A stretch of DNA of 44,602 nucleotides from an uncultured Bacteroidota bacterium. GTDB lineage: Bacteria; Bacteroidota; Bacteroidia; JABEUT01. Where the stretch lies: assembly GCA_903916255.1 (NCBI GenBank), contig CAIWVW010000134.1, positions 1-44,602 of the forward strand. The letters are read 5' to 3'. Of this stretch, positions 7,025-39,858 are shown in pieces. How positions within the stretch are numbered: position 1 is the first letter of the stretch; the number at the start of each line of letters is the position of its first letter. The position numbers were made by a program, and so were the translations under genes. Below the pieces are notes generated by a model that was given only the letters and a program-made list of their open reading frames with translations, was not told the origin of the DNA and ran no database searches.

Positions 7025-7387
7025 ATGAAAAACTTAATGGCAAGTGTTTCATTCTTTACACTAATTATTGCGGCAGCCTGCAATCAACCGGTAAAAACAG
7101 AAACCTCAGCAACACTTAAAAGTTGGGATTTTGTTATTACATCGAATACTACAAAGCAAAACTTAGACAGTGTATCGACAGCATGGGCAAAAGACAGCAT
7201 CGATTTGAAATTTACCAGGGTAGTATTTGATTCCCTTGGAAAACTATCTAAAATAACAGGAACTGTTTATATGACTTCGATGGGGAAGCATGTTAGTGGT
7301 GAGTTTGCAGAAGACAGCCTTAGCAAAAAACCCCAAGAAATATTAATGGATAACAGGCCAAGCATAACGCTAAGGGGCAAAAAATAG
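7025..7387 (+). CDS. Small lipoprotein with a domain shared with M56/BlaR1-type proteins
   Basis: The predicted 120-aa protein starts with a lipoprotein signal (SFFTLIIAAAC, cysteine about residue 19). The body, VITSNTTKQNLDSVSTAWAK...FDSLGKLSKITGTVYM, resembles the small domain found at the C-terminus of Bacteroidota M56 (BlaR1-like) metallopeptidases. There the pattern is I.pnTTk..Ld....l...gI...f...y...Gki..I. Here it is free-standing and lipidated. The frame is open to 7004, but the -7 box TACCTTTG at 6994-7001 puts transcription start near 7008, so ATG 7025 is preferred. Role unknown. Confidence 0.75.
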   Translation: MKNLMASVSFFTLIIAAACNQPVKTETSATLKSWDFVITSNTTKQNLDSVSTAWAKDSIDLKFTRVVFDSLGKLSKITGTVYMTSMGKHVSGEFAEDSLSKKPQEILMDNRPSITLRGKK

Positions 7388-7405
7388 GATTTGATATCCT
7401 GAATT

Positions 7406-8575
7406 TTGAATTCGATTACAAAAACAAAAGTAGCCATAATAGGCAGCGGGCCGTCAGCATTGATGCTGGCTTCGCACCTCGATGAAAAAAAGTTTGAGGT
7501 TACCATCTACGAAAAAAATAAAGCCCCTGCACGTAAGTTTTTGGTCGCCGGAGATGGGGGGTTTAACCTGACCCATTCCGAACCGTTGGAACAATTTGTT
7601 AAACGGTACACGCCTTCTGTTTTTATGGAGCAGCTTCTTCGCGCCTTTTCCAATACAGATTTGCAGGCGTGGCTCAACTCAATTGGCATCCCCACATTCA
7701 CCGGAACAAGCAAACGCATTTTCCCGAAGAAAGGCATTAAACCTATAGAAGTACTGAATGCAATTTTAAAGGTATTGAAAGATAAAAACGTAAAACTTCA
7801 AACAGAACATGAATGGAAGGGCGAAGAAACGGATGCAGATATAACCGTGTTTGCATTGGGTGGCTCAAGTTGGAAAATAACCGGCTCCGATGGGAGCTGG
7901 ACAACCTTTTTTAAAGAAAAGGGAATCAAGATTATCCCTTTTCAGCCCTCTAATTGTGCCTTTCAAATACAATGGCCGAAAAACCTCATTAGCCTGGCCG
8001 CCGGGTTACCGCTTAAAAACATTGCGTTGAAAACTCTGAATATTCGTAAGGAAGGTGAGGTGGTTTTAACCGAGTTTGGAATGGAAGGAAGCGCTATTTA
8101 TGCGCTAAGCCCGCAAATAAGGCAGCAACTAAACGACCGGCAAAAAGCGATTATTTATATAGGTTTGAAGCCCTCCCTCAGCCAGAACAAAGTAATAGAA
8201 GTATTGAAAAAAAAGCCCGGAAATACCACCATGACTGCCTATTTAGATGGTACGCTGAATCTTTCAAAAGCGCAAATAGCGCTGCTGAAAAACATGACGG
8301 CGAAGGAGGATTTTATAAACCCGGAAATACTTGCCAATAAAATTAAAGAACTTCCATTGGAGATAATCGGCATGGGCCCTATCGATGAAGCTATATCTAC
8401 CGTTGGTGGCATCGCACTGAATGAAATAGATACGCATTTCCAATTAAAAAATTGGCCCAACCATTATGCCATTGGCGAAATGCTTGATTGGGATGCTCCT
8501 ACGGGAGGTTATCTATTGCAAGGCAGTTTCAGTATGGGATATAGCCTGGCGGCATATTTGAATAAATCCGTGTAA
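7406..8575 (+). CDS. FAD-dependent oxidoreductase, HI0933/PP_4765-like flavoprotein (TTG start)
   Basis: This 389-aa protein has a two-dinucleotide-binding flavoprotein fold. It opens with VAIIGSGPSALMLASHL (Rossmann GxGxxA-type loop), then YEKNKAPARKFLVAGDGGFNLTHSE, which is diagnostic of the HI0933/BaiN-like clan and especially the PP_4765 (TIGR03862-like) subgroup. The C-terminal FAD strand reads AIGEMLDWDAPTGGYLLQ. A stop codon in frame at 7400-7402 leaves only TTG at 7406 (or ATT at 7403) before the Rossmann strand, so a TTG start is nearly forced. It follows the lipoprotein gene by 18 bases and is probably cotranscribed. The reaction is unknown. Confidence 0.88.
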   Translation: MNSITKTKVAIIGSGPSALMLASHLDEKKFEVTIYEKNKAPARKFLVAGDGGFNLTHSEPLEQFVKRYTPSVFMEQLLRAFSNTDLQAWLNSIGIPTFTGTSKRIFPKKGIKPIEVLNAILKVLKDKNVKLQTEHEWKGEETDADITVFALGGSSWKITGSDGSWTTFFKEKGIKIIPFQPSNCAFQIQWPKNLISLAAGLPLKNIALKTLNIRKEGEVVLTEFGMEGSAIYALSPQIRQQLNDRQKAIIYIGLKPSLSQNKVIEVLKKKPGNTTMTAYLDGTLNLSKAQIALLKNMTAKEDFINPEILANKIKELPLEIIGMGPIDEAISTVGGIALNEIDTHFQLKNWPNHYAIGEMLDWDAPTGGYLLQGSFSMGYSLAAYLNKSV

Positions 8576-9808: not shown

Positions 9809-10489
9809 TTACACAACTTTCTTTTTGCCTTTCCTCCAATAAGAAACAATTTTTATACCGATAACACCTGCCAGAATGATATATGGCAAAGTGTTCAACT
9901 CATCATAGAAAAAGCTTGTTGAAAAAAGAACGATATAAAGAATGAGCGGCAGAAACATGTCTGCTTTTATGGCATTATCCTCTGCCTGTGTCGGCAAATA
10001 GGTCAACTCTTTATGCTTTTTGAAAGCGAGCCAATAAAGAGCGCAAAGCGAGAGGAGCGTGAGTATATTATTAATCCAAAACAGTTTAATTCCTAAGCTG
10101 AATACGGAAGGGTTGTTACCGCTTTCAGCAAATAAAGAAGTAGTGAAAGGAAAAAAGATAATTGTCAGAAGAAAAATCATATTGGCTAACAGCAAACGGT
10201 TGTTATAATTTTGGATATGCTTGAATAATTTATGGTGCATCTGCCAATAGTATGCTATCACCAGAAAGCTTACTATCAATTCGATAAAGCCATATTTCAA
10301 TTCCAAAAGCTGGGCTACAACTTGGTCATACGTATCTTCTTTCGCAATATGCGGAATTTTAATTTCCAAAACCAGCAGGGTGATGGCAATAGCAATAACA
10401 GCATCAGAAAAGAATGCAATTCGCTCCACCATAAAGTCTTGTTTAGGGTGCTTTTCAGCATCTTCTGAATGCGATTTATGATGTGTCAT
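9809..10489 (-). CDS. TMEM175-type potassium channel family membrane protein (second copy)
   Basis: This 226-aa protein has about six transmembrane helices and the family signature RIAFFSDAVIAIAITLLVLEIKIP near residues 23-46. It keeps the FSD that the copy at 5834 has as FCD. The N-terminus is hydrophilic and His-rich, and the C-terminus basic (YWRKGKKK). It has its own -7 box TATCTTTG (complement of 10518-10525), with a possible TTTG (complement of 10543-10546) 17 bases upstream, inside the repeat and the stop region of the neighbouring gene. It is flanked by direct repeats at 9753-9800 and 10539-10583. Ion selectivity is inferred from family only. Confidence 0.88.
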   Translation of the reverse strand: MTHHKSHSEDAEKHPKQDFMVERIAFFSDAVIAIAITLLVLEIKIPHIAKEDTYDQVVAQLLELKYGFIELIVSFLVIAYYWQMHHKLFKHIQNYNNRLLLANMIFLLTIIFFPFTTSLFAESGNNPSVFSLGIKLFWINNILTLLSLCALYWLAFKKHKELTYLPTQAEDNAIKADMFLPLILYIVLFSTSFFYDELNTLPYIILAGVIGIKIVSYWRKGKKKVV

Positions 10490-35296: not shown

Positions 35297-35425
35297 ATGA
35301 CAAAACCAACACTAACGACACAAATGCGCAGTTTGACACAACATGAGCGCGACCTGCAAATAGCTATTGCTCAGGAAATTGGCATGGCTGTGGTAACAAT
35401 TTACCAAGGGAACTACTTACATTGA
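35297..35425 (+). pseudogene. 5' half of a Cro-like HTH gene, split by the transposon
   Basis: ATG 35297 opens a reading frame for 37 native codons (MTKPTLTTQMRSLTQ...AQEIGMAVVTIYQ), then continues five codons into the transposon's left end (GNYLH) and stops at TGA 35423-35425. Its continuation lies at 39745-39858 on the far side of the element. Deleting 35408-39744 (the element plus one target copy) restores TIYQWAKYYPERLAK in frame, a 74-aa small HTH protein interrupted in the recognition helix. Divergence from the S24 repressor makes it a Cro- or CII-type phage regulator. The truncated product is unlikely to bind DNA properly. Confidence 0.88.
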
Positions 35426-35430
35426 AGGAC
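35400..35430. repeat. Left target duplication and terminal inverted repeat
   Basis: TTTACCAA (35400-35407) is the left copy of an 8-bp target duplication. The 23-bp inverted repeat follows at 35408-35430: GGGAACTACTTAC, then A, then TTGAAGGAC. It is the reverse complement of 39714-39736 except at the fourteenth base (A here, T there). Confidence 0.93.
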
Positions 35431-35517
35431 TAAACCTCAAAAATAGACAATTTTCCTGTCTAAATATTAGACAATACTTAGAAATCCTGTAAAATTTAAG
35501 GAAGAATATTAAGACAG

Positions 35518-35826
35518 TTATCTGGGTATTGGACAGCTCAATTCTTTGAACCTACTTATGTAGTGTCCAATATATTCAGCCATAGAAGGAGTATAGTTTG
35601 TTAAAACTAATCTACCCTTCATTTCATGGAAGCCATGTTTTTCAATTAAACTCCCGATTGAGGAATTTAAGAAAGAACTTGATAGAATATTACAATCTTT
35701 CAATGAAAGAACAATAGTGTCCCCGTTACTAATGATTTTATCCATTAATACAAAAAGCGTATAACCTTCTATGTTTGTAGAGGTTCCTGATACTACTTCT
35801 TTTATTTTTACTACTTCTTTTTTCAT
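35518..35826 (-). CDS. STAS-like protein (DUF4325)
   Basis: The 102-aa cytoplasmic protein fits DUF4325: IEGYTLFVLMDKIISNGDTIVLSLKDCNILSSSFLNSSIGSLIEKHG. This alternation of strand, helix, strand and the SSSFLNSS serine patch resembles STAS/anti-sigma-antagonist folds. DUF4325 proteins are often encoded beside GHKL ATPases, as here (69 bases downstream of one). By analogy with SpoIIAA/SpoIIAB, the pair could be a phospho-switch; that is inference. A -7 box TACATTTG (complement of 35857-35864) and an inverted repeat ACAAAAT...ATTTTGT (35833-35851) lie just upstream, so it may also have its own promoter. Confidence 0.75.
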   Translation of the reverse strand: MKKEVVKIKEVVSGTSTNIEGYTLFVLMDKIISNGDTIVLSLKDCNILSSSFLNSSIGSLIEKHGFHEMKGRLVLTNYTPSMAEYIGHYISRFKELSCPIPR

Positions 35827-35895
35827 TGGATAACAAAATTACACATTTTGTGAATACAAATGTATGATATTTGGATGAACGTAATATGATTTTTA

Positions 35896-36807
35896 TTATA
35901 TGATGTCAATTTCTTGTTCGGATTCAGCTTCAATATTTCTAAAGGTTGAGGTGTCAAATTTAATAATCAAATATGTGCCGGGAAATGAAAAACTAAGATT
36001 ATCTTTCATGTTTCTTACGTTATTATTGACGGTTTGTTCCGAATAATACGCTTTATTTGAAACAATTTCAATTTCTCCATTGGATGCCTTAACGTTAGAA
36101 AGGATATTATCTAACCCAAAACCTCTATTGTGAGGCTTAGAATACGTAGAAAAACCTTGAAATAAAGCCATTTCAAGGGCTTTAACATCATTTAACCTTT
36201 GTTTCCCTGCTTTATTTAGATATTCATTGACATTATTAGGAATACCTACGCCAAAATCACATATAGATATTGTGAGTTTGCATTTATTTGGAATATACTG
36301 AGTTGATATAAATCCGCTAATGGGTGAATTTGCATGGTCTGAAATATTATTTAAAGCCTCAACAACAGTTAACCCCAATGAAGTTAAATCTTTGCCTGTA
36401 AAATGGGATTTATAGTAATTTTGAATTGTAATCCCAAAAGCATCAACATATTCAGGTTTAAGTTGCCATAATGGCATGGTATTATTATAGGTTTGAAGGC
36501 TAAGGCAGTAGTTTTTATCAAATTCGCTTCCCCAATAATAAGCAAACTTAGAATATTTCAAAAATTTTTCAATACTGGATTTTGGTAAACATTTGAAACT
36601 AATTGAATTATTAGTTTGTTTATATTCTTCAATTACACAAGCCAAAGAAACAATATGGAAGGGACATAAAAAATCTGCATTGGTAAAATCAAATATATAA
36701 TGGCGACGAAATATTGAACGTTTATTTCGTGCATCAATTATGAACCTTAACCAATCAACAAGATGTCCTGCCCTACAATTAGGTATAGTGATTACTGTCT
36801 TTAACAT
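35896..36807 (-). CDS. GHKL (histidine kinase-like) ATPase with N-terminal domain
   Basis: The 303-aa protein has a Bergerat-fold ATPase domain at about 135-290: N box VVEALNNISDHA (E150, N154), G1 box DFGVGIP (D184-G188) and G2 box NRGFGLDNI (G229, G231). No DHp helix or phospho-accepting histidine is evident, so it is not a classical kinase. It is closer to SpoIIAB/RsbW-like or MutL-like ATPases of conflict loci. The N-terminal 120 residues are alpha/beta and may be a STAS-like or partner-binding domain (HYIFDFTNADFLCPFHIVSLA). It has a TACGTTTG -7 box (complement of 36820-36827) and sits upstream of the DUF4325 gene. Biological role unknown. Confidence 0.82.
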   Translation of the reverse strand: MLKTVITIPNCRAGHLVDWLRFIIDARNKRSIFRRHYIFDFTNADFLCPFHIVSLACVIEEYKQTNNSISFKCLPKSSIEKFLKYSKFAYYWGSEFDKNYCLSLQTYNNTMPLWQLKPEYVDAFGITIQNYYKSHFTGKDLTSLGLTVVEALNNISDHANSPISGFISTQYIPNKCKLTISICDFGVGIPNNVNEYLNKAGKQRLNDVKALEMALFQGFSTYSKPHNRGFGLDNILSNVKASNGEIEIVSNKAYYSEQTVNNNVRNMKDNLSFSFPGTYLIIKFDTSTFRNIEAESEQEIDII

Positions 36808-36872
36808 ATTTTATTTATGCAAACGTAGCAAAATATATTGCTATGATGCTTAAATAAAAATATTCTGTAAAA

Positions 36873-37007
36873 TTATTCCCCAGTTTTTTTGACTTTCTTT
36901 TTGGGCTTTTTTATATCGGGCTTAACAGATGCTTTCAGTACATCCAAGAAAGTCCCGTTAATAGGGTACTGAATATCCAATTTACTTTTTTTCTTAGCCT
37001 TCTTCAT
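36873..37007 (-). CDS. 44-aa lysine-rich protein
   Basis: The ORF from ATG 37007 to TAA 36873-36875 encodes a 44-aa protein with basic ends (MKKAKKKSKLDIQ and KKPKKKVKKTGE) around YPINGTFLDVLKASVK. It is well placed between the GHKL and HEPN-like genes. A TATCTTTG -7 box (complement of 37012-37019) lies so close to the ATG that the transcript would be nearly leaderless. It could be an antitoxin-like or nucleic-acid-binding peptide. Its short coding length makes the call tentative. Confidence 0.55.
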   Translation of the reverse strand: MKKAKKKSKLDIQYPINGTFLDVLKASVKPDIKKPKKKVKKTGE

Positions 37008-37040
37008 TTTGCAAAGATATAATATTTGTATGTTTGTTTT

Positions 37041-37658
37041 ATGGGGAAGAAAAATAAAAAGAAGGAATTTGAATTTCCTTTAATAGATGAATCCGAAATT
37101 GGCAATGAGCATGATATTAAATGTGCTGCTTACAGAGGTAAAGTGATTCATTACATGATAAACATTGAGACGACAACTGAATCCATTATTCAGGTTTATT
37201 ATTTTGGTATCCCTCGAAAAGATTCTTCAAGAGATAGGCTTAACGAATTCATGCGAAAACAACAAGAGTTTGTGAGTTCTGTAATTTCAAAGGATAGATT
37301 TTCTTTCATGTTTAAGTTTGAAATATTAACATTTATCTTGAAAAATCATTACAAGGACTTCTTAAAAGAGCATGATTATTTCCTTAAAACATTTGAAGAA
37401 TTAATAAACTTTAGAAATAAGTTTGCTCATTATAATTACATTAATTATTCTCTGCCTCTTAACCCTAATAGGATTGCGCTTTTATATCCCACTACGACAA
37501 GAAGTGAAGTAGCATTTACTACTGTTGATGTTACCGATAAGTTTATGAAGGAGTTTTTTGGAAAATATCAAGTCCTTCGTAAAGACCTAAAAGAAATTGA
37601 ATCTGATATAACAAAAAGGGCTATAACTGAATCGCCGGACAGCGTTAGACAGAAATAA
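37041..37658 (+). CDS. HEPN-like protein with RNKFAH motif
   Basis: From ATG 37041 (a TTG at 37026 is in frame) this is a 205-aa protein with a basic start (MGKKNKKKEFEF). A helical region (about 60-150) contains EFEILTFILKNHYKDF and then LINFRNKFAHYNY, with R125 and H130 in the R-x4-H arrangement of HEPN RNases and HEPN-like toxins. HEPN proteins often cut RNA in toxin-antitoxin and antiphage systems. The C-terminal part has a beta segment (NRIALLYPTTTRSEVAFTTVD). It is the only plus-strand gene in the transposon and is divergent from the 44-aa gene. Without an alignment the HEPN link is suggestive only. Confidence 0.65.
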   Translation: MGKKNKKKEFEFPLIDESEIGNEHDIKCAAYRGKVIHYMINIETTTESIIQVYYFGIPRKDSSRDRLNEFMRKQQEFVSSVISKDRFSFMFKFEILTFILKNHYKDFLKEHDYFLKTFEELINFRNKFAHYNYINYSLPLNPNRIALLYPTTTRSEVAFTTVDVTDKFMKEFFGKYQVLRKDLKEIESDITKRAITESPDSVRQK

Positions 37659-37672
37659 CCCTCCTGCAAAGA

Positions 37673-37690
37673 TAGGTTAATCTTAACCTA
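37673..37690. terminator. Perfect 8-bp hairpin between convergent genes
   Basis: TAGGTTAA (37673-37680) and TTAACCTA (37683-37690) form a perfect stem with a 2-base loop, overlapping the transposase stop. It lacks a good T-run, so it may be a weak terminator or a pause for the convergent HEPN-like and transposase transcripts. Confidence 0.4.
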
Positions 37691-38606
37691 CCAATCTTTT
37701 CCAAGTCAATCTACTTTCAGACTGTCGTAAGAAATTTTCAAACCTTTCATCCTCTCCCAAGTGCCTTGTATTATAACGGGCGCAAAACTCATCCAAATAG
37801 CGGTTAATGTGCTTTTCGCTTGTATAGTGGTATATTCCATAGATACCCCGTTTAAGGTTAGCCCAAAAGCCCTCTATTGTGTTTGTAGTTACATCCCCAT
37901 CAACATAAATCTGTAAGATATGCCTAACGGATTTATGGTTATACTTTTTCCCTACTTCAATATAAGCCCCATGTTCATCCGTATGCAGATTTGAGCCCAA
38001 TTCAATATGCTCTGTTATTACTGGCGAAATAACTTCCCGTGTCGGGGCTTTAATTCTTTGAGCATAAACCCTGCCGCCTCTTTCCACTAATCCGAGCATT
38101 GCAATTTTGTCCCCTACCCCTGTAACACCTTTTCTTTTGTGTTTATGGCGGTTCTTATCCCTGCCTCCTACATAGGTCTCATCCGCTTCAACAGTACCCT
38201 TGAGCATTACAGGTTCTTTTGCCCTTAGCATTTCCCTGATACGGTGCAATAAATACCACGCTGTTTTCTGTGTTATGTTTAAATCCCTGCTAAGTTGCAA
38301 AGATGAGATTCCCTTTTTGTGTGCTGTCTGCAAGTAGATAGCGGCAAACCATGTACGCAATGGGATATGGCTTTGCTCAAAGATTGTACCGACTTTAACG
38401 GTGAACTTCTTATGACAAAGTTTTTCAGAACACTTGAAACCTTTTGCAGTTCTGTACGGTGTTTTGAAACTGCCACAATGAGGACACACGGGCTGACCGT
38501 TCCACCTTACTTGCTCGTAAAATGAAATACAGGTTTTTTCATCCTTAAAGTAATCCAGTAATTCAATTACGGATTTAAAGTTAAATATGTTCTTAATATT
38601 TGTCAT
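37683..38606 (-). CDS. IS1595-family (ISXO2-like) transposase
   Basis: The 307-aa protein begins with a zinc ribbon (C41, C44, C59, C64 in CPHCGSFKTPY...KCSEKLCHKKF). A helix-turn-helix segment follows (LQLSRDLNITQKTAWYLLHRI), then the ISXO2/IS1595 RNase H-type domain. That domain has VEADETYVGG (D142), HTDEHGAY (D210) and TTNTIEGFWANLKRG (E245 as the third catalytic candidate). The length fits a full-size family member with no frameshift, so it may be active. It is the only transposase in the 35408-39736 element and is presumed to move it. Confidence 0.92.
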   Translation of the reverse strand: MTNIKNIFNFKSVIELLDYFKDEKTCISFYEQVRWNGQPVCPHCGSFKTPYRTAKGFKCSEKLCHKKFTVKVGTIFEQSHIPLRTWFAAIYLQTAHKKGISSLQLSRDLNITQKTAWYLLHRIREMLRAKEPVMLKGTVEADETYVGGRDKNRHKHKRKGVTGVGDKIAMLGLVERGGRVYAQRIKAPTREVISPVITEHIELGSNLHTDEHGAYIEVGKKYNHKSVRHILQIYVDGDVTTNTIEGFWANLKRGIYGIYHYTSEKHINRYLDEFCARYNTRHLGEDERFENFLRQSESRLTWKRLVG

Positions 38607-38647
38607 AATTCTATTATAAGGACTGTGATAACTAAGTAATGTTTGTT

Positions 38648-39544
38648 TTATTGTTTATATGTGTTATCATCATTTAATTTCTTGGCAATACTTTGTGCTA
38701 TCCTTTTGTGTTCACCATCATTCACAAAACACTCTAATAAATAATCAAACAAATCAAAAATATCCTTTGCAGCCTTGTATTTACCATCAATAGGAATAGT
38801 ATTACATTCATCTTCCTTTTTAGAGTGTACTCCATCTGAAAGTTTTGCATATAGCAAAGAGAACGTATTAACCTCAATATCTTTACGCCTTGCGCCTAAT
38901 GGAAGAAAGTTATCCATTTTATCCATTAGCGGGGTTGTTTTAAAATCTATTGCATATTGTTTTAAAATTTCATTACATTCGGCTGTTTGTTGCGCAATTA
39001 ATATCCGTTTTGCGACATCCTCTAAAACCCTTCTTAGATAAGCATAGGAAGCAATACCAAAACCATCATAATGACAAATTTTAGCATACTTATACATTTT
39101 TAATTCTTCGGACATTAAGAATTTTTTAACGTAAAATGGCGGTTCTAAATTAAACTTAGGATATTGCCCAATCTTCTGCACGGTTGTAATTGAAGTAATC
39201 AATTTCGGTGGGGTTACACCTTTGTCATAAACAGTGTCCTTTTTTATTTGTAAAATCATAGTCATTTTGTACTGCTTACAATTTTGGCATAATCCATAAT
39301 AGATTTGAGCAGTAACGGTACTTGAAACGTTCCCAGAGTTATAAGAGTATTGGGTGAATCCGTTTTGCCCTGATGTATTCGCATGAGGTATAAAAAGCTC
39401 AAAGCCTTCCTGCCCTTGACATATATCACAATGAAACTTAAAGGGAATACAGAAATGTGTTTTGTCTGTAAAGCCGCCAACTTCCTTTTCGGAATATAAG
39501 GGAGCAGAAGATAAAAATACTGATATGTCCTTTCTTTCATCCAT
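38648..39544 (-). CDS. DUF4145-domain protein with zinc ribbon
   Basis: From ATG 39544 this is a 298-aa protein. The N-terminal half has a zinc-ribbon-like CxxC...CxxC set (C39, C42, C86, C89 in CDIC and CQNC). The C-terminal half is the DUF4145 helical domain with SYAYLRRVLEDVAKRILIAQQ and LSDGVHSKKEDECN. DUF4145 proteins are frequent cargo of mobile elements and have been likened to HEPN-like helical bundles. The frame is open to 39613, but a TATATTTG -7 box (complement of 39574-39581) lies inside that stretch, so the shorter start is preferred. Role unknown. Confidence 0.8.
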   Translation of the reverse strand: MDERKDISVFLSSAPLYSEKEVGGFTDKTHFCIPFKFHCDICQGQEGFELFIPHANTSGQNGFTQYSYNSGNVSSTVTAQIYYGLCQNCKQYKMTMILQIKKDTVYDKGVTPPKLITSITTVQKIGQYPKFNLEPPFYVKKFLMSEELKMYKYAKICHYDGFGIASYAYLRRVLEDVAKRILIAQQTAECNEILKQYAIDFKTTPLMDKMDNFLPLGARRKDIEVNTFSLLYAKLSDGVHSKKEDECNTIPIDGKYKAAKDIFDLFDYLLECFVNDGEHKRIAQSIAKKLNDDNTYKQ

Positions 39545-39711
39545 AAGTATGTTTTTAATAAAGTTTATTATCACAAATATACGATACCTAATAAGGTAAT
39601 ATAGACTTTTCATTTTTCGTAATTTTTTCGATTGTTAATAGACACATTTATACGGTTTTTTAGACGCCTGAAATTGTGTGTGATTTTGTCTGATTATTAG
39701 ACGTTTTAGAC

Positions 39712-39858
39712 ATGTCCTTCAAAGTAAGTAGTTCCCTTTACCAATGGGCAAAATATTATCCGGAACGCCTGGCTAAGAATCCGGCAGCGTTGAAAGTAAT
39801 TCTGAAATATATGAAAGAAACAAAGCGGGAAAATAAAAAGCAATTATCAAAAATATAA
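39712..39858 (+). pseudogene. 3' half of the split Cro-like HTH gene
   Basis: The native part is 39745-39858 (37 codons plus stop, WAKYYPERLAKNPAALKV...). A frame opening at ATG 39712 inside the right inverted repeat leads into it as MSFKVSSSLYQWAK, which could give a 48-aa fragment lacking the first helices. It joins the left half at 35297-35407 without loss or gain of a base once the element and one target copy are removed. Confidence 0.85.
39714..39744. repeat. Right terminal inverted repeat and target duplication
   Basis: GTCCTTCAA then A then GTAAGTAGTTCCC (39714-39736) is the complement of the left end except for one base, followed by the target duplication copy TTTACCAA (39737-39744). 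Inside it the sequence continues with TAGACG, TAGAC and TAGACA motifs at about 39661-39712. Confidence 0.93.

What the first reader, a model, noticed from the sequence alone, without database searches (positions are those of the whole stretch)
35518..36807. DUF4325 STAS-like protein paired with a GHKL ATPase on a transposon
A STAS-like protein and a kinase-like ATPase without a phospho-acceptor His are encoded together, resembling the architecture of SpoIIAA-SpoIIAB type switches. No sigma factor is nearby, so the output is unknown. As transposon cargo the pair could be a defence or host-takeover regulator. The GHKL protein may itself carry an N-terminal STAS-like part (about 1-120).
Basis: partly seen in the sequence, partly recalled or inferred. 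Interest (0 to 1): 0.65.

Follow-up and report, generated by a model that had tools for sequence, protein, structure and literature searches.

The report
Transposon-borne kinase and STAS-protein switch
A transposon inserted in a prophage regulator gene carries a two-gene switch, a DNA-damage-type protein kinase and the small protein it probably phosphorylates, belonging to a lineage of the newly described CapK/CapS and VapK/VapS systems that lacks the usual toxin or DNA-binding output and travels on prophages, plasmids and transposons.

Summary
Two intact minus-strand genes encode a 303-aa protein K (N-terminal STAS domain plus GHKL kinase) and a 102-aa protein S (STAS, DUF4325). Both lie inside a 4,329-bp IS1595-family transposon (35408-39736; inverted repeats and an 8-bp target duplication both present). 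The pair is homologous to CapK/CapS and VapK/VapS, reported in 2026 as kinase-STAS pairs activated by single-stranded DNA. S matches solved VapS, and its Ser50 aligns with the VapS phosphoserine. That position is Ser or Thr in every S aligned. All GHKL catalytic residues are kept. S, however, lacks both the CapS DNA-binding domain and the VapS toxin-blocking tail, and no toxin follows it. About 40 related loci (Firmicute prophages, Bacteroidota chromosomes, plasmids, this transposon) share this reduced form, while VapKSC loci with a PIN toxin form a separate clade. The HEPN-like neighbour belongs to the IS1595 element, not to the pair: a sister transposon carries it without K-S. Most likely K phosphorylates S on DNA damage or phage attack and changes how S binds an unlinked partner. 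The partner and the ssDNA trigger are inferred. This is a new variant of a known kind.

The parts
35408..39736 (.). IS1595-family transposon, 4,329 bp, one copy in the genome, inserted in a cro-like prophage gene
   Evidence: Terminal inverted repeats and duplicated target; transposase PF12762 E 2e-38
35408..35430 (+). left terminal inverted repeat GGGAACTACTTACATTGAAGGAC
39714..39736 (-). right terminal inverted repeat (1 mismatch in 23)
35400..35407 (.). 8-bp target duplication TTTACCAA, left
39737..39744 (.). 8-bp target duplication TTTACCAA, right
35896..36807 (-). K: CapK/VapK-like kinase, N-terminal STAS (about 1-88) plus GHKL kinase (about 118-300); E150, N154, D184, G186, G229, G231 conserved; F46 at the position suggested for ssDNA sensing
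   Evidence: phrog_3364 E 3e-37
35518..35826 (-). S: STAS protein (DUF4325), presumed phospho-acceptor Ser50, no DNA-binding domain, no VapS-type tail
   Evidence: VapS (9z7o) E 6e-4 with S, 1.9e-13 with the family profile; conservation
35857..35864 (-). TACATTTG, Bacteroidota -7 box-like motif between K and S; a TAnnTTTG-like box recurs in this gap in many related Bacteroidota loci
36820..36827 (-). TACGTTTG, Bacteroidota -7 box-like motif before K
   Evidence: sequence
36873..37007 (-). 44-aa basic mini-ORF; weak counterpart in the sister IS1595 element
37041..37658 (+). HEPN-like protein (RNxxAH motif), accessory gene of the IS1595 element
37683..38606 (-). IS1595-family transposase
   Evidence: PF12762 and NF033547
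38648..39613 (-). 321-aa protein without Pfam match, two Cys pairs; second passenger, not in the sister element
35297..35407 (+). 5' part of the interrupted cro-like HTH gene (continues at 39745-39858)
   Evidence: joined flanks give one open frame

Best explanation
K and S form a reduced CapK/VapK-type kinase-substrate switch carried as passenger DNA by an IS1595 transposon. K is a STAS-GHKL serine kinase, probably activated by single-stranded DNA bound between its STAS and GHKL domains. It phosphorylates Ser50 of S. S has neither a DNA-binding domain nor a toxin-blocking tail, so it most likely acts by binding another protein, encoded elsewhere, through its STAS surface; phosphorylation by K makes or breaks that contact when DNA is damaged or phage replicates. 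Supported here: homology, domain structure, catalytic and acceptor residues, mobile location, absence of a linked output gene. Inferred from CapKS/VapKSC: kinase activity, ssDNA trigger, phosphorylation of Ser50. Inferred without direct evidence: the unlinked partner and the benefit.
For: S matches VapS, the only PDB hit of the family profile (E 1.9e-13), and Ser50 aligns with the residue I take to be VapS S48. Ser or Thr at this place in 39/39 toxin-less, 8/8 VapKSC and 3/3 TM-type S; E150 and N154 invariant in 51/51 K; F46 aromatic in 34/39 toxin-less K and F or W in 7/8 VapK, as for CapK W68 and VapK F54 (PMC13373217). Fold: nearest PDB matches SpoIIAB; fused K-S model pLDDT 88, pTM 0.86. 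Toxin-less loci: S 91-122 aa, tail 0-14 residues after column 95, no recurring downstream gene; VapKSC loci: S 114-122 aa, tail 18-21, a PIN-type gene mostly overlapping S. Tree: VapK clade 98, prophage toxin-less clade 99, TM-type clade 99. The pair recurs in Firmicute prophages, Hymenobacter plasmids and Bacteroidota chromosomes.
Against: No experiment on any toxin-less pair was found. The output of S is unknown and cannot be derived from neighbours. The F46/W68/F54 equivalence rests on position and residue type, since the published CapK and VapK sequences could not be retrieved. K is only 24-37% identical to its relatives.
Confidence: 0.6

Rival explanations
1. A VapKSC-like toxin-antitoxin system in which the HEPN-like protein at 37041-37658 replaces the PIN toxin and S is its antitoxin.
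For: The gene lies in the same transposon, starts about 230 bp from K in the opposite direction, and keeps an RNxxAH motif typical of HEPN RNases.
Against: Its two other copies in this genome lie beside IS1595 transposases (one a remnant) without K-S, and a complete sister transposon (L049:7858-10333, TSD ATTCTTTG) has transposase and HEPN-like gene only. None of the other K-S loci carries it. It is on the opposite strand.
Confidence: 0.1
2. A true partner switch on a sigma factor: K is an anti-sigma factor and S its antagonist, as in SpoIIAB/SpoIIAA.
For: K's GHKL domain is structurally closest to SpoIIAB; S carries the acceptor serine.
Against: No sigma gene in the transposon; the pair also occurs in an archaeal prophage (psiM100), whose host does not use bacterial sigma factors (general knowledge); K has an extra STAS domain as in CapK/VapK; sequence relatives are CapKS/VapKSC.
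Confidence: 0.12
3. A counter-defence decoy: the tail-less S is a false substrate or weak binder that blunts the host's own VapKSC or CapKS systems.
For: VapS without its tail cannot block VapC (PMC13373217); toxin-less pairs sit on mobile elements; in L105 a toxin-less pair is adjacent to a complete VapKSC.
Against: A decoy would not need its own conserved kinase; most loci have no VapKSC nearby; PF14213 has a single match in this genome.
Confidence: 0.1
4. Decayed remnant of a VapKSC or CapKS operon that lost its output gene.
For: No linked output gene.
Against: About 40 diverged loci keep all catalytic and acceptor residues, with the same reduced S length and close K-S spacing or overlap, which decay would not maintain.
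Confidence: 0.05

Closest known systems
VapKSC (VapK-VapS-VapC toxin-antitoxin, PMC13373217)
   Same: K with STAS-GHKL and no N-terminal HTH; S a STAS protein homologous to VapS with the conserved acceptor serine; K-then-S gene order.
   Different: No VapC/PIN gene; S lacks the C-terminal tail that blocks VapC; K lies outside the VapK clade.
CapK/CapS (immune operon regulators, PMC13373217)
   Same: Kinase-STAS pair; promoter-like box between K and S, as capS has its own promoter.
   Different: K has no HTH; S has no wHTH; no immune operon downstream.
SpoIIAB/SpoIIAA and RsbW/RsbV
   Same: GHKL fold and STAS substrate with a serine acceptor.
   Different: K carries its own STAS domain; no sigma factor; no sequence match to SpoIIAA in the profile search.
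phrog_3364 (K) and phrog_9989 (S)
   Same: Phage protein families of unknown function that match K (3e-37) and S (3.5e-7).
   Different: These families had no function assigned; the link to CapK/VapK is made here.

Membership tests
VapKSC | Kinase with STAS and GHKL domains, no HTH | tested here: met
VapKSC | VapS homologue with conserved Ser/Thr | tested here: met
VapKSC | VapS C-terminal tail that blocks VapC | tested here: not met
   0-14 residues after column 95 versus 18-21 in VapKSC
VapKSC | Adjacent VapC-like PIN gene | tested here: not met
   Next same-strand gene is 325 bp away, outside the transposon, an S24-type repressor
CapK/CapS | CapK N-terminal HTH | tested here: not met
   K begins directly with STAS
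CapK/CapS | CapS C-terminal wHTH | tested here: not met
   S is 102 aa, DUF4325 only; positive control L054 has DUF4325 plus HTH_5
CapK/CapS | Upstream of an immune operon | tested here: not met
   Transposon contents
CapK/VapK | ssDNA-activated kinase activity | not testable with these tools
   Only the aromatic F46 at the expected place
SpoIIAB/SpoIIAA partner switch | Binds a sigma factor | not testable with these tools
   No sigma gene in the transposon
IS1595 transposon | IS1595 transposase, terminal inverted repeats, 8-bp target duplication | tested here: met

The most novel reading that the evidence does not exclude
The toxin-less K-S pair is a third, unreported kind of CapK-type system: a stand-alone two-gene switch, spread by prophages (bacterial and possibly archaeal), plasmids and an IS1595 transposon, that senses DNA damage and acts through S on a host protein encoded elsewhere.
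Probability: 0.5. Interest if true: 0.65.

Novelty: new variant of a known kind. Interest (0 to 1): 0.5.

Why it matters
It gives a probable biochemical activity to two phage families of unknown function (phrog_3364 and phrog_9989) and extends a 2026 discovery beyond operons with a linked promoter or toxin. If K and S act without a linked effector, they must have an unlinked target, which pull-downs with S or S50A could find. It also shows such a switch moving on an IS1595 transposon into a prophage regulator gene.

Tried and rejected
HEPN as partner of K-S: rejected, since it tracks the IS1595 transposase. Sequence homology between K's STAS part and S by profile comparison: not detected, so shared STAS fold only. 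Defence-island test: neighbours of 15 toxin-less loci include type I restriction subunits (up to 3 MTase_I, 2 REase_I, 2 specificity members) and none occur among control neighbours, but the sample is small and the controls also hold some defence-like hits, so only suggestive. Other IS1595 transposases near K-S loci: one, beside a VapKSC-type locus about 7 kb away (L046).

Full report
Observation. Two genes lie head to tail on the minus strand: K (35896-36807, 303 aa) and S (35518-35826, 102 aa), 69 bp apart. S matches Pfam DUF4325, a STAS-like domain, at 38.7 bits against a cut-off of 23; K gives a sub-threshold HATPase_c match. K has an N-terminal STAS domain: the K profile matches the prestin STAS domain over positions 5-88 (E 2e-4), a model of residues 1-112 retrieves mostly STAS proteins, and its secondary structure is strand-helix-strand-helix-strand-helix. 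The GHKL part is closest to SpoIIAB among solved structures.

Mobile element. The pair lies in an IS1595-family transposon bounded by inverted repeats at 35408-35430 and 39714-39736 and flanked by the direct repeat TTTACCAA. Joining the flanks restores one open frame for a small HTH-like protein beside an S24-type repressor, so the target was a cro-like prophage gene. The inverted repeat occurs nowhere else in the genome. A sister element elsewhere in the genome (L049:7858-10333, similar inverted repeats, target duplication ATTCTTTG) carries the transposase, the HEPN-like gene and a similar mini-ORF, but neither K-S nor the 321-aa protein. K-S is therefore extra cargo, and the HEPN-like gene belongs to the element.

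Relatives. Chambers et al. (PMC13373217) describe CapK/CapS and VapK/VapS/VapC: STAS-GHKL kinases that phosphorylate a conserved serine in a STAS partner, CapK being activated by single-stranded DNA. The only solved structure that matches the S family is VapS (E 6e-4 for S, 1.9e-13 for the profile). S Ser50 aligns with chain residue 66 of 9z7o, which I take to be VapS S48 because the chain is 18 residues longer than the 116-residue VapS (the numbering is my inference). K homologues occur in 26 of 395 sampled Bacteroidota genomes.

Architectures. Classifying non-redundant loci gives four kinds: toxin-less K-S (39 counted, plus L105 found by inspection), VapKSC with a PIN-type gene (8), K-S plus a transmembrane protein in proteobacterial prophages (3-4), and one CapKS with an S-wHTH protein (L054) followed, by my reading of the sequence, by ubiquitin-like and E1-like genes, which serves as a positive control. 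Toxin-less S proteins end 0-14 residues after alignment column 95, VapS proteins 18-21 residues after it. The K tree puts VapK (98), TM-type (99) and prophage toxin-less K (99) in supported clades; the window K groups with Bacteroidota toxin-less K (90 for the 19-row group) (quick search, SH-aLRT only). The window S is 51% identical over 84 residues to the S in L105, which sits beside a separate VapKSC locus.

Distribution. The toxin-less pair is found in 30 or more viral contigs, many duplicates, often after lysis genes and near the contig end; in GBS prophages; on two Hymenobacter plasmids; and in isolated chromosomal places in Flavobacteriia. A K homologue with a short DUF4325-like neighbour lies in an inserted fragment of the archaeal prophage psiM100. 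Phage KIRK of Francisella lists a 293-aa protein, a DUF4325 protein and a TM protein in a row, unrecognised by its authors (PMC7924643); that this is a K-S-TM set is my inference.

Residues. Ser or Thr at position 50 of S: 39/39 toxin-less, 8/8 VapKSC, 3/3 TM-type. E150 and N154 of K: 51/51. F46 of K: Phe in 34/39 toxin-less, Phe or Trp in 7/8 VapK. This matches the published alternation of CapK W68 and VapK F54, shown to be needed for ssDNA-stimulated activity (CapK) and for phage protection (VapK), but the equivalence was not tested against the published sequences.

Mechanism. Most likely K senses single-stranded DNA and phosphorylates S Ser50, which changes S binding to a partner. In the known systems the partner is another CapS on DNA, or VapC. 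Neither can apply directly here, because S has no wHTH and no tail and there is no PIN gene. I therefore favour an unlinked protein target, stated as inference. A Bacteroidota -7 box-like motif in the K-S gap (TACATTTG here, TAnnTTTG-like in many relatives) suggests separate expression of S, as reported for capS.

Limits. The fused K-S model was made by reading through the stop codons between the two genes, which are in frame; its pTM of 0.86 is consistent with a defined arrangement, but no coordinates were available to inspect the interface. No toxin-less pair was found in the searched literature; subscription papers and supplementary tables were not searched.

Noticed in passing
window 37041-37658; L048:9621-10202; L049:9500-10096: Three paralogues of a HEPN-like protein (RNxxAH motif), each convergent with an IS1595 transposase or its remnant: an apparent accessory gene of this IS1595 group, with only one marginal match in 394 other Bacteroidota genomes sampled.
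   Followed up: partly
window 36873-37007; L049 about 10168-10233: Small basic ORF (GTFLDVLKASVKPDI...) divergent from the HEPN-like gene in both complete IS1595 elements.
   Followed up: partly
window 38648-39613: 321-aa protein with CxxC pairs and no Pfam match, second passenger of the transposon; only one weak match in 295 other Bacteroidota genomes.
   Followed up: partly
L100, L101, L102, L104: Proteobacterial prophages carry K-S followed by a membrane protein (GWFFLSRDNDRRE-like), possibly a membrane-acting output; phage KIRK of Francisella may have a similar set.
   Followed up: partly
L105:4449-8200: A toxin-less K-S pair diverges from a complete VapKSC locus beside a type I restriction gene.
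   Followed up: partly
L059 (psiM100 prophage, record 7090-8221): Archaeal prophage inserted fragment IFa carries a K homologue and a short DUF4325-like neighbour next to 125-bp direct repeats.
   Followed up: no
L038:8117-11565: A K-S pair between a complete SRAP-like (SOS response-associated) gene and a broken second copy.
   Followed up: no
window 35857-35864 and related Bacteroidota loci: TAnnTTTG-like box in the K-S gap, suggesting a separate promoter for S.
   Followed up: partly
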